Origin: a bacterium | GTDB lineage: Bacteria > 4484-113 > JALSIF01 | DNA: 6,921 nt | Direction of reading: 5' to 3' | Assembly (NCBI GenBank): GCA_026981635.1 | Contig: JALSIF010000005.1 | Span: forward strand, 1 to 6,921 | Part shown: piece after piece, positions 1,986 through 5,180 of the stretch | Position numbering within the stretch: position 1 is the first letter of the stretch | How the letters are laid out: each line of letters opens with the position of its first letter | Made by a program: the position numbers and the translations under genes | Notes under the pieces: model-generated | Seen by the model: only the letters and a program-made list of their open reading frames with translations | Database searches by the model: none | Told to the model about the DNA's origin: nothing

Positions 1986-3970
1986 CTCCGGCGGGCACCC
2001 CTTCCCCGCCCCCGGCTGAGGGCGAAGAGCAGGGCCTGAAGGTCGGCCGGATCCACCCCGGGGATGCGGCCCGCCTGGCCCAGGGTCTCAGGCCTGACCT
2101 TGGAAAGTTTCTCCTTGGCCTCGGCGGAGAGGCTCTCCACCTGGTCAAAGTCAAAGTCAGGCGGGATCCTCACCGCCTCGCTCTCCCTCAGCTGCTCAAC
2201 CTCCCGAAGCTGGCGCTCCAGGTAGCCCCGGTAGCGGGCCTCAATCTCCACCTGCTCCACCGCCAGGGGGTCCAGGCTGTCCATGAGGTAGAGCAGCTCC
2301 TCGCTCATCACCGGCCGAAGGCGCTCCAGGGTGGTGGCGGGAAACTGGAGGGCCTCCAAGACGCTGCGGGGCTCTCCGGCGGGGAGCCCCGCCTGGGCAA
2401 GCTGTTCGCGGGAGAGGCGCTCGCGCCCGAGGGCCTCCCGAAGCTCCTCCACCTGGGAGAGCACCTCCCTGGCCCGGCGCCACTTGGCCTCCGGCAGCAG
2501 GCCGGCCCGGTGGGCGATCTCGGAGAGGCGAGTAAGGGCGTTGTCAAACCGGCAGAGGAGGCGAAACTCACAGCGGGCGGTAAACATCCGGTAGGGGTCG
2601 GTCACCCCCTTGGTGGTGAGGTCATCAATCAGGGTGCCGATGTAGCCGGTCTCCCGGGTAAGTGGGAGGGGCTCCCTGCCCGCCAGGGTGAGGGCGGCGT
2701 TGGCACCCGCCACCAACCCCTGGGCACCTGCCTCCTCGTAGCCGGTGGTGCCGCAGAGGTTCCCCGCCATGAAGAGGCCGGCCACCAGCTCTGACTCCAG
2801 GGCGCGGGTGAGGTGGATGGGGTTGTGGACGCTGTACTCCACCGCATAGCCGGGGCGGACGATGTGGGCCCGCTCAAGGCCCGGTATGGTGGCAAGCATC
2901 TGGTACTGCACCTCCAGGGGCAGGGAGGTGGAGAGACCCTGGAGATAGATCTCGGTGGTGGCAAGGCCGTCCGGCTCAACGAAGATGGGGTGGTGGAGGT
3001 TTTGGGGGAAGCGCTTCACCTTGTCCTCAATGGAGGGGCAGTAGCGGGGCCCGGGGCCGGCGATGAGGCCGGCAAAGAGAGCGCTCCGCTCAAGGTTTTT
3101 GCGCAGCACCGCGATGGTCTCGGGGCGGGTACGGGTGATCCAGCAGGGAAGCTGGAGGCCGCCACCCCCTTCCAGGGGCTTAAAACTTGAGAAGCCGTAG
3201 CGGTAGGGGCGGGAGAGCTGAACCTCCAGGCGGGAGAAGTCCACCGTGCGCCCGTCCAGGCGGGGGCTGGTGCCGGTCTTTAGGCGGATGAAGCGAAGGC
3301 CAAGCTTCCTCAGGTTCTCCTCCAGGGCCATGCTTGCCGGCTCGCCCATCCGCCCGCCGGGGAGGGTGGTCTCGCCGATGAAGAGGCGGCCGCCCAGGAA
3401 GGTGCCGGTGCAGAGGACCACCCGGGGGGCCAGGATCACCTCACCGGTGGAAAGCCTTACCCCCCGCACATAGAGGGGCTGGCGGAAGTGGGTGGGGCGC
3501 TCCCGCTGTTTCTGCCAGGGGAGACTGCGGGGAGAGCGGCCGGGGCGCTCGGCAAGCTCCTCCTCGGGGGCAGTTTCAAACTCACCCACCAGAAGCTCCA
3601 CCACCTCACCCTGGTAGAGGCTGAGATGGGGGGTCTGCTCCAGGCGCTGCTTCATGAGCAGGGAGTAGCGGGCCCGGTCGGACTGGCTACGCAGGGCCTG
3701 CACGGCGGGGCCGCGGCCGGTGTTGAGCATGCGGAAGTTGACTGCCGCCCGGTCGGTTATCTCTCCCATCGCCCCGCCCAGGGCGTCTATCTCCCGGATG
3801 AGGTGGCCCTTGGCCGGGCCCCCCATGCTGGGGTTGCAGCTCATGCGGGCGATGGCGTCAAGCTGGAGGGTGATGAGCAGGGTTTCCATGCCCAGCCGGG
3901 CGGCAGCCAGGGCGGCCTCGCAGCCGGCATGGCCCCCACCCACCACGATGACGTCGTAGCGCTGCCACAT
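1982..3970 (-). CDS. mnmG: tRNA uridine-5-carboxymethylaminomethyl modification enzyme MnmG (GidA)
   Basis: MnmG is an FAD- and NADH-using protein that, with the GTPase MnmE, installs (carboxymethyl)aminomethyl groups on wobble U34 of certain tRNAs in the cytoplasm. The 662-residue product (E. coli has 629) starts YDVIVVGGGHAGCEAALAAA, the GxGxxG FAD-binding fold. Next come CNPSMGGPAKGHLIREIDALGG (Cys45) and FRMLNTGRGPAVQALRSQSDR. The GidA signature YCPSIEDKVKRF holds the conserved Cys311, and GTTGYEEAGAQGLVAG is at 407-422. The C-terminal MnmE-binding region ends YLERQLREVEQL, IPPDFDFD, then RPETLGQAGRIPGVDPADL. Both conserved cysteines are kept. Oddities: about 35 extra residues near 129-165, changes in the second GidA signature (GNLCG where GQxNG is usual), TGTSPRLDG for TGTPPR, and an Arg-rich tail. 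The ATG has no Shine-Dalgarno; a TAATCT -10-like box ends 14 nt upstream. The adjacent beta-barrel gene has the same orientation. Confidence 0.96.
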   Translation of the reverse strand: MWQRYDVIVVGGGHAGCEAALAAARLGMETLLITLQLDAIARMSCNPSMGGPAKGHLIREIDALGGAMGEITDRAAVNFRMLNTGRGPAVQALRSQSDRARYSLLMKQRLEQTPHLSLYQGEVVELLVGEFETAPEEELAERPGRSPRSLPWQKQRERPTHFRQPLYVRGVRLSTGEVILAPRVVLCTGTFLGGRLFIGETTLPGGRMGEPASMALEENLRKLGLRFIRLKTGTSPRLDGRTVDFSRLEVQLSRPYRYGFSSFKPLEGGGGLQLPCWITRTRPETIAVLRKNLERSALFAGLIAGPGPRYCPSIEDKVKRFPQNLHHPIFVEPDGLATTEIYLQGLSTSLPLEVQYQMLATIPGLERAHIVRPGYAVEYSVHNPIHLTRALESELVAGLFMAGNLCGTTGYEEAGAQGLVAGANAALTLAGREPLPLTRETGYIGTLIDDLTTKGVTDPYRMFTARCEFRLLCRFDNALTRLSEIAHRAGLLPEAKWRRAREVLSQVEELREALGRERLSREQLAQAGLPAGEPRSVLEALQFPATTLERLRPVMSEELLYLMDSLDPLAVEQVEIEARYRGYLERQLREVEQLRESEAVRIPPDFDFDQVESLSAEAKEKLSKVRPETLGQAGRIPGVDPADLQALLFALSRGRGRGARRS

Positions 3971-3984
3971 TGGAAGCGAAGTCT

Positions 3985-3990
3985 AGATTA
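3985..3990 (-). promoter_or_regulatory. Candidate -10 box for mnmG
   Basis: Read on the minus strand, TAATCT ends 14 nt before the mnmG ATG and would place transcription start about 7 nt before it. The leader would be too short for a ribosome binding site, and none is seen. No clear -35 is visible. Weak evidence on its own; it gains weight because other genes in the window show the same arrangement. Confidence 0.35.
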
Positions 3991-3995
3991 GCGCG

Positions 3996-4014
3996 AAACC
4001 GGCCCCGAGGCCAG
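3996..4014 (-). terminator. Small GC-rich hairpin after the beta-barrel gene, possible weak terminator
   Basis: Directly after the beta-barrel TAG the minus strand reads CTGGCC-TCGG-GGCCGG, then TTT. This folds as a 6-bp stem (one G-U pair) with a 4-nt loop. The T run is only three bases, so it would be a poor intrinsic terminator. It may instead attenuate read-through or protect the mRNA end. It lies just upstream of the candidate mnmG promoter. Confidence 0.3.
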
Positions 4015-5172
4015 CTACCAGCGGAGGAAACCGCTTATGGTCAGGCGGTAGTCCCGCTCAAGCTGGGGGCCGTGGAGGTTCTGGTAGAGGGGAAGCCTGA
4101 TCCCCAGGGCTATCCCCTGGTTCCTCCCCATCCCGGGACGGGAGCTGAGGGAGAGATCCAGCCCCAGGTCCAGCCGGGTCCCCCCCTGGATGTGGGGACC
4201 GGCGGTGGGCACCAGAGAGGGATTGAGCTCCGGGTCCCTTCCCCGGATGTCCTTCCACCCCTCCCCCGCCAGGGAGAGCCTGAGGTGGGCCTTTCTCCCC
4301 AGCGGGTAGCGCTTCCAGAGCTCGGCGCTGAGCTCGTTTCCCAGCCGGTAGCCGCTGGAGTTTCTCCCCGTGCGCAGTACCCCCTCCAGCCCAAAACCCC
4401 AGCGGGATCTCCCTTGGAGGTACTCCCGCTGGTAGCCGAGGACCAGGTCCCAGGTCCCCGAGCCAAGCTGCATGGCGTAGGGGAGCTTGGCGCTCTCATT
4501 CATGGGAGTCCGGCCCCGCTTGCTCACCGAGCCGGTGGGGATGCTTATCCCCAGGCGGTAGCGGGGACCGGGGGCCATGTGACCGCGGGGGGAGTGCTGC
4601 CAGAGGAGCAGGAGGTCTCCCAGGCCCCGGGAGCGGGTGACGAACCTGGTCCCCATGCGGGTGCGGTGGCGCATGCTGAGGCTCTTGTAGGAGCCCATCA
4701 GCATGAACATCTCCCTCTCCCCCGCCATGTACATGAGCTCAACCATGTGGGCCTGCATGGACATCTGCTCGGGGGTAACGGGGAAACTTTCCAGCACCTC
4801 CTCCACCGAGCGCCGGGAGCGACCCTGGCGCAGCCCCTCCATCCCCATCTGGCCGAAGCGGTAGCGGAGCATGAGGCGGTGGCGGCGCATCCCCATCTCC
4901 ATCCCCATGGGGTGGGCCATGGGCTCTTCGCTCGGGGCCGGCTGGGCACTGGTGGCAAGTCCGGTCAGTCCAGCCAGGATTAGAAAGCCGCCCCCTTCCC
5001 CACGCCAGGAGGCAGAAAGCAGGCCGCCCACAGAAAAATCAGCCCCCGCAAAGGGAGGCGAAGGGGACGGGTGCCAGGCCCCCGCCGGCGAAAGGAAAGG
5101 CCCCTGAGAGAGGAGGAGGGCCAGGGTGAGCAACAGGAAATGCTTGGCGACCGGCTTAGCTGGATACCCCAT
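4015..5172 (-). CDS. Methionine-rich outer-membrane beta-barrel protein, PF13557-like family, probably linked to Cu/Ag handling
   Basis: 385 residues with an N-terminal signal peptide (basic KPVAKH, hydrophobic FLLLTLALLL, likely cut after AGA near residue 32) and a C-terminal Trp, as in many barrels folded by BAM. The body matches a family I recognise from copper/silver-resistance neighbourhoods, usually annotated as transporter or 'MetA-pathway of phenol degradation': MGTRFVTRSRGLGDL (173-187), YRLGISIPTGSVSKRGRTPM, LPYAMQLGSGTWDLVLGY (230-247), LNPSLVPTAGPHIQGGTRLDL and LPLYQNLHGPQLERDY. Residues 85-199 contain 19 Met, with MEMGM, MSM, MYM and MFMLM, the soft-metal MxM type. The transport role is not proven for the family. 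Residues 33-80 look added and include a second hydrophobic stretch ending TSAQPA. The ATG sits inside a CsoR-type dyad just after an extended -10, so the mRNA is probably leaderless and repressor-controlled. The long plus-strand frame opposite it is a shadow. Confidence 0.82.
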   Translation of the reverse strand: MGYPAKPVAKHFLLLTLALLLSQGPFLSPAGAWHPSPSPPFAGADFSVGGLLSASWRGEGGGFLILAGLTGLATSAQPAPSEEPMAHPMGMEMGMRRHRLMLRYRFGQMGMEGLRQGRSRRSVEEVLESFPVTPEQMSMQAHMVELMYMAGEREMFMLMGSYKSLSMRHRTRMGTRFVTRSRGLGDLLLLWQHSPRGHMAPGPRYRLGISIPTGSVSKRGRTPMNESAKLPYAMQLGSGTWDLVLGYQREYLQGRSRWGFGLEGVLRTGRNSSGYRLGNELSAELWKRYPLGRKAHLRLSLAGEGWKDIRGRDPELNPSLVPTAGPHIQGGTRLDLGLDLSLSSRPGMGRNQGIALGIRLPLYQNLHGPQLERDYRLTISGFLRW

Positions 5173-5180
5173 AGGGGTAT
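5164..5180. promoter_or_regulatory. Candidate CsoR-family operator over the start of the beta-barrel gene
   Basis: A perfect dyad, ATACCCC-ATA-GGGGTAT, has 7-bp arms and a 3-bp centre. It spans the ATG (5172-5170) and the predicted transcription start near 5175. TACCC-N5-GGGTA is the layout known for operators of the CsoR/CstR branch of the CsoR/RcnR/FrmR repressors, which release DNA on binding Cu(I) or reacting with persulfide. Bound here, a repressor would block transcription initiation. No csoR-like gene is in the window. That this is an operator is inference; the dyad itself is seen directly. Confidence 0.65.

What the first reader, a model, noticed from the sequence alone, without database searches (positions are those of the whole stretch)
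5164..5180. CsoR-type operator dyad straddling the start codon of a Met-rich outer-membrane gene
ATACCCC-ATA-GGGGTAT is a perfect 7+3+7 dyad and keeps the TACCC-N5-GGGTA spacing of CsoR/CstR operators. It lies right after an extended -10 and covers the predicted +1 and the ATG. The gene it controls encodes a barrel with MxM motifs. Together they predict direct Cu/Ag (or persulfide) control of an outer-membrane protein by a repressor whose operator includes the start codon.
Basis: partly seen in the sequence, partly recalled or inferred. Interest (0 to 1): 0.75.

Follow-up and report, generated by a model that had tools for sequence, protein, structure and literature searches.

The report
Copper-repressor operator over start codon
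The palindrome is almost certainly a docking site for a CsoR-type (copper-sensing) repressor, one of about 16 such sites in this bacterium's genome; here it covers the start codon of a methionine-rich outer-membrane channel gene, so copper probably switches that channel on directly.

Summary
The dyad ATACCCC-ATA-GGGGTAT (5164-5180) is real and perfect, and covers the ATG (5172-5170, minus strand) of the barrel gene. It is a regulon motif. ATACCC-N5-GGGTAT (<=1 mismatch) occurs 17 times in this 1.75-Mb MAG against 2 for the reversed pattern and about 1.7 expected from nine class relatives. Of 14 exact TACCC-N2-8-GGGTA matches, 12 have N5. It equals the published Streptomyces lividans CsoR consensus core (PMC3902906). 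The genome has four CsoR-family genes; the C24 one has the Cu(I) triad C56-H81-C85 and its own site. Other sites precede a CopA-type ATPase, DsbD, CcsA/ResB, cytochrome b and Met-rich exported proteins. Nine of 29 related csoR genes carry the dyad upstream (expectation 0.02). AlphaFold2 predicts an outer-membrane barrel with invariant methionines. No Shine-Dalgarno, and an extended -10 lies 9 nt before ATG: near-leaderless transcription is likely. Not shown: binding, metal response, which paralogue acts. Distant barrel homologues lack the dyad; some carry DUF2946/CruR-like leader ORFs. Main interest: an unusually broad CsoR regulon and a start-codon operator.

The parts
5164..5180 (.). CsoR-type (type 2) operator dyad ATACCCC-N3-GGGGTAT, containing the ATG of the barrel gene
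   Evidence: published consensus core ATACCC-N5-GGGTAT (PMC3902906)
5182..5190 (-). extended -10 element TGG-TATATT of the predicted barrel promoter
   Evidence: sequence and hexamer scan; no good -35
5170..5172 (-). ATG start codon inside the dyad, 9 nt after the -10, no Shine-Dalgarno; probably (near-)leaderless
4015..5172 (-). gene for a 385-aa Met-rich outer-membrane beta-barrel (about 12 strands), signal peptide about residues 1-32
4648..4923 (-). methionine-rich stretch (residues 84-175, 18 Met) including family-invariant M101, M137, M143, M147, M167

Best explanation
The dyad is a type-2 CsoR operator. An apo-CsoR repressor, most likely the C24 paralogue that also carries its own copy of the site, binds across the +1 region and start codon of the barrel gene, just downstream of its extended -10, and blocks RNA polymerase. 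When Cu(I) fills the C56-H81-C85 site the repressor lets go; a transcript with almost no leader is made and translated into a Met-rich outer-membrane barrel that handles copper at the outer membrane. The same repressor would control about 15 other promoters: csoR with a MerT/CopZ-like gene, a CopA-type ATPase, DsbD, CcsA/ResB, cytochrome b, a Rieske protein, Met-rich exported proteins and a rhodanese. Shown by computation: the dyad, its genome-wide enrichment and spacing, promoter positions, the CsoR fingerprint and the predicted barrel fold. Inferred: binding, copper response, identity of the acting paralogue, leaderless start, and the barrel's role and direction of transport.
For: Enrichment 17 versus 2 (reversed control) and versus 1.74 expected from nine relatives, none of which has a protein resembling the C24 CsoR at better than E 1e-5; N5 spacing in 12 of 14. 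Sites lie at promoters: in 7 of 16 sites the right-arm TAT starts a -10-like hexamer (TATAAT, TATAAA, TATATT, TATCAT), and in about five others, this one included, the -10 lies just upstream so the dyad covers +1. Four CsoR-family genes; C24 CsoR has RLRR and C56/H81/C85, best PDB match a CsoR (4m1p), and its own site upstream. Targets include a CopA-type ATPase and a MerT/HMA fusion. Nine of 29 related csoR loci in other genomes have the dyad upstream, 0.02 expected, and G017 has an exact copy just before its csoR. Published core ATACCC-N5-GGGTAT and TAC-N9-GTA (PMC3902906). Barrel: AF2 mean pLDDT 80.7, above 90 for most of residues 101-385; COG4313 channel 4rl8 Z 25.0; invariant Met in a 50-sequence alignment; some homologues lie beside multicopper oxidase, SCO1, DUF411 or P-type ATPase genes.
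Against: No binding or expression data. Three other CsoR-family paralogues (C302 also has C-H-C) could be the one that binds. The dyad is not conserved upstream of distant barrel homologues, and no close orthologue exists to test. Several putative targets (DsbD, CcsA/ResB, cytochrome b, Rieske, rhodanese) are not classical CsoR targets and could point to a sulfur or redox signal. The MAG is 85% complete in 317 contigs. No -35 box for the barrel promoter.
Confidence: 0.78

Rival explanations
1. The regulon belongs to a persulfide- or redox-sensing CsoR-family repressor (CstR-like, such as T. thermophilus TTHA1953), not a copper sensor; copper genes are only part of an envelope thiol/cytochrome response.
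For: Targets include DsbD, CcsA/ResB, cytochrome b, a Rieske protein and an exported rhodanese. C146 encodes a CsoR-like protein without the His of the triad, next to a thioredoxin-like gene. TTHA1953 controls sox and cytochrome genes scattered over its genome (PMC10318464).
Against: The CsoR that carries the site has C-H-C; targets include a Cu-type ATPase and a CopZ-like domain; the TTHA1953 consensus TACNNTACNNNNGTANNGTA lacks G/C tracts, unlike this motif.
Confidence: 0.14
2. The dyad acts in RNA as a hairpin that hides the start codon, i.e. translational control.
For: The transcript would fold AUACCCC-UAU-GGGGUAU into a 7-bp hairpin with the AUG at its loop.
Against: The region folds no better than shuffles (z -0.36). 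The same dyad occurs at many other genes at varying distances from the start and often overlaps the -10. A transcript starting 0-3 nt before the ATG would lack the left arm.
Confidence: 0.04
3. A chance palindrome in GC-rich DNA, or part of a terminator for the upstream fumC gene.
For: It lies 33-49 nt downstream of the fumC stop codon on the same strand.
Against: No T-run follows; the terminator scan does not flag it; genome-wide enrichment and spacing.
Confidence: 0.03

Closest known systems
CsoR of Streptomyces lividans and its type-2 operators (PMC3902906)
   Same: Operator core ATACCC-N5-GGGTAT with TAC-N9-GTA; csoR has its own site; copper ATPase and chaperone targets; RLXR motif, and a Cu-ligand triad, in the C24 repressor.
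   Different: S. lividans has three sites; here about 16 promoter sites including an outer-membrane barrel, DsbD and cytochrome-assembly genes, and one operator includes the start codon.
Mesorhizobium NreA, nickel-responsive CsoR/RcnR family (PMC12724321)
   Same: Compact promoter with operator dyad and a leaderless mRNA starting at the ATG.
   Different: NreA's operator lies between -35 and -10 and senses Ni; here the dyad lies downstream of the -10 and contains the ATG.
T. thermophilus TTHA1953 (PMC10318464)
   Same: CsoR-family repressor with a scattered regulon that includes cytochrome genes.
   Different: Different consensus without G/C tracts; regulates sulfur oxidation; not released by metals.
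COG4313 outer-membrane channel (4rl8) and FapF barrels
   Same: Predicted barrel fold, Z 25.0 and 23.9.
   Different: About 10% sequence identity; the invariant methionines mark a separate family without a Pfam or NCBIfam match.
PcoB/CopB copper outer-membrane proteins (PMC9210255, PMC12509749)
   Same: Works-like candidate: copper-linked outer-membrane barrel.
   Different: The window barrel has no match to any Pfam family at E<=1, and PcoB was not compared directly.
CruR/CutF DUF2946 leader ORFs (PMC9426467, PMC9973294)
   Same: Copper control of envelope genes; RAPP-like-ended leader ORFs precede 16 of 78 barrel homologues tested.
   Different: The window gene has no such leader ORF; it has a DNA operator instead.

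Membership tests
CsoR type-2 operator | TAC-N9-GTA inverted repeat flanking two G/C tracts, core ATACCC-N5-GGGTAT | tested here: met
   exact in 5164-5180; consensus from PMC3902906
CsoR type-2 operator | located at promoters of csoR and copper-efflux genes in the same genome | tested here: met
   C24 csoR and C309 CopA-type ATPase
CsoR type-2 operator | bound by apo-CsoR and released by Cu(I) | not testable with these tools
   needs gel shift or footprint
CsoR repressor (C24 protein) | DUF156/PF02583 domain | tested here: met
   73 bits, cut-off 22.8
CsoR repressor (C24 protein) | Cu(I) ligand triad Cys-His-Cys | tested here: met
   C56, H81, C85 in alignment with the CsoR chain 4m1p and with the paralogues
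CsoR repressor (C24 protein) | RLXR DNA-contact motif in helix 1 | tested here: met
   RLRR (motif from PMC3902906)
CstR persulfide sensor | two cysteines without the His of the copper triad in the acting regulator | tested here: not met
   C24, the presumed acting regulator, has the His; only C146 lacks it while keeping both Cys
COG4313-like outer-membrane channel | barrel fold | tested here: met
   AF2 model, Z 25.0, rmsd 2.6, 252 residues to 4rl8
COG4313-like outer-membrane channel | sequence-family membership | tested here: inconclusive
   no Pfam or NCBIfam hit; about 10% identity
PcoB/CopB | match to the CopB family profile in Pfam-A | tested here: not met
   no Pfam-A family matches at E<=1

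The most novel reading that the evidence does not exclude
One CsoR paralogue has become a global envelope-copper regulator in this lineage, with about 16 promoters spanning outer-membrane channel, efflux, DsbD/Ccs thiol and haem maturation and respiratory-chain genes, using start-codon operators on leaderless mRNAs, while distant barrel relatives use other copper controls such as translational leader ORFs.
Probability: 0.45. Interest if true: 0.65.

Novelty: new variant of a known kind. Interest (0 to 1): 0.52.

Why it matters
Known CsoR regulons are small: in gut Firmicutes csoR and copA promoters make up over 90% of them, with reported sites 20-180 bp upstream of the start (PMC4938975). Here a textbook CsoR motif marks about 16 promoters in a 1.75-Mb genome, five or so of them for envelope redox and cytochrome functions, and one operator contains the start codon itself. 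It ties a widespread, unnamed family of Met-rich outer-membrane barrels to copper by two independent lines (a CsoR operator here; DUF2946-type leader ORFs and copper-gene neighbours elsewhere), which makes the barrel's function testable.

Tried and rejected
RNA hairpin at the start codon: not more stable than shuffles. Terminator for fumC: no T-run. Conservation of the dyad upstream of distant barrel homologues: absent, 4 near-matches versus 3 expected. PDB sequence search with the barrel: no hits. The Foldseek rows shown do not include PcoB; this says nothing about relatedness. Some near-matches look like chance: C312 inside an ABC-transporter gene, C263, C22, C117:11340. Extra exact core sites at C219 (near or inside an ORF) and C306 (contig end) were not counted.

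Full report
Observation. The sequence at 5164-5180 is ATACCCCATAGGGGTAT, a perfect 7+3+7 dyad. On the minus strand it contains the ATG (5172-5170) of a 385-aa ORF. TGG-TATATT, an extended -10, ends 9 nt before that ATG. There is no Shine-Dalgarno and no credible -35. The gene lies 40 nt after fumC and 44 nt before mnmG on the same strand.

Is it more than chance? ATACCC-N5-GGGTAT with at most one mismatch occurs 17 times in this MAG (1.745 Mb, 85% complete) against 2 for the reversed pattern; nine relatives of the same class hold 25 in 25.1 Mb, so 1.74 are expected (P about 7e-12). Nine of the 17 are exact; the relatives together have one. With the arms fixed as TACCC and GGGTA and the spacer free from 2 to 8, 12 of 14 matches have N5. 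This is a regulatory motif.

What binds it? The motif is the core of the S. lividans CsoR consensus, ATACCC-N5-GGGTAT, with TAC-N9-GTA as the essential element (PMC3902906). The genome has four PF02583 genes. The C24 one has RLRR and C56-H81-C85, is most similar among solved structures to a CsoR (4m1p), and has ATCCCCTGGGGGGGTAT 14 nt before its own start, followed by TGGTATATT and a predicted leaderless ATG. It is followed by a MerT/HMA (CopZ-like) fusion gene. Of 29 related csoR loci in other genomes, nine have the dyad just upstream of csoR, where shuffles give 0.02. Those genomes have at most one or two exact sites and totals below the 17 seen here, in most cases nearer their reversed-pattern control, so the breadth here is unusual. 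Paralogue C302 also has a C-H-C triad and cannot be excluded.

What else carries it? Oriented toward genes, sites precede: csoR-MerT/CopZ (C24), a YHS/HMBD CopA-type ATPase (C309), DsbD (C25), CcsA/ResB (C287), cytochrome b plus a Met-rich exported protein (C315), a Rieske protein (C69), a Met-rich exported protein (C123), a porin-like protein (C284), an exported rhodanese (C92), a beta-propeller protein (C270, where the dyad also reaches the ATG), two lipoprotein-like genes (C40), a cupin (C292) and several unknowns (C117, C124, C20). In seven the right-arm TAT is the start of a -10-like hexamer; in about five, the window among them, the dyad lies just downstream of or overlapping the end of a -10. 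Both positions suit a repressor.

The barrel. A scan of genomes of 84,980 species found 123 stretches encoding relatives, 80 kept, from many phyla. A 50-sequence alignment shows invariant M101, M137, M143, M147, M167, M234 and a consensus MTMQMHM. AlphaFold2 gives a confident barrel for about residues 98-385, closest to the COG4313 channel (Z 25.0) and FapF (Z 23.9). Some homologues neighbour multicopper oxidase, SCO1/SenC, DUF411 or Cu-type ATPase genes, and 16 of 78 have an upstream ORF ending in an RAPP-like motif, versus 1 in the control, as in the copper-sensing DUF2946-type leaders CruR and CutF (PMC9426467, PMC9973294). So a copper link for the family is supported independently of the dyad. 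The dyad itself is not conserved upstream of them. CruR lowers expression with copper and CutF raises it, so the direction in those relatives is open.

Mechanism. Best reading: apo-CsoR on the dyad blocks polymerase at +1; Cu(I) releases it; a leaderless or near-leaderless mRNA follows. Precedent: the CsoR/RcnR-family repressor NreA controls a leaderless nickel operon (PMC12724321). Reported CsoR sites lie 20-180 bp upstream of the start (PMC4938975), so an operator over the ATG is outside that range. The persulfide reading is kept at 0.14 because several targets are thiol, haem or sulfur genes.

Limits. No experiment, an incomplete MAG, no close relative for phylogenetic footprinting, and target genes assigned by simple ORF inspection. 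Whether the conserved methionines face the channel or the lipid was not determined.

Noticed in passing
L069:4480-4887, L145:4470-4877, L087:4437-4835 and others: Met-rich barrel homologues are preceded by small Cys-containing ORFs ending in RAPP-like motifs, resembling DUF2946/CruR/CutF copper leader peptides (16 of 78 versus 1 in the control).
   Followed up: partly
L076, L080, L082, L084, L085, L086, L141, roughly 60-130 nt upstream of the barrel start: Cyanobacterial barrel homologues share TTTGACnnnnTGTCTTTTGAC upstream, a different possible cis element.
   Followed up: no
G000:C33:5091-5104 (L178): An N4 version, TACCCTACGGGGTA, ends 4 nt before the start of a rhodanese-domain-like gene on the contig of the C33 CsoR-like paralogue, which lacks the His and second Cys of the triad.
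   Followed up: no
L041:1162-1828: CsoR-like gene without the triad His followed by a thioredoxin-like 109-aa ORF.
   Followed up: no
window 3970-4015: mnmG (tRNA modification) starts 44 nt after the barrel gene and could be co-transcribed from the presumed copper-controlled promoter.
   Followed up: no
L023:316-2356: Two tandem paralogous lipoprotein-like genes without Pfam match, behind an exact core-motif copy.
   Followed up: no
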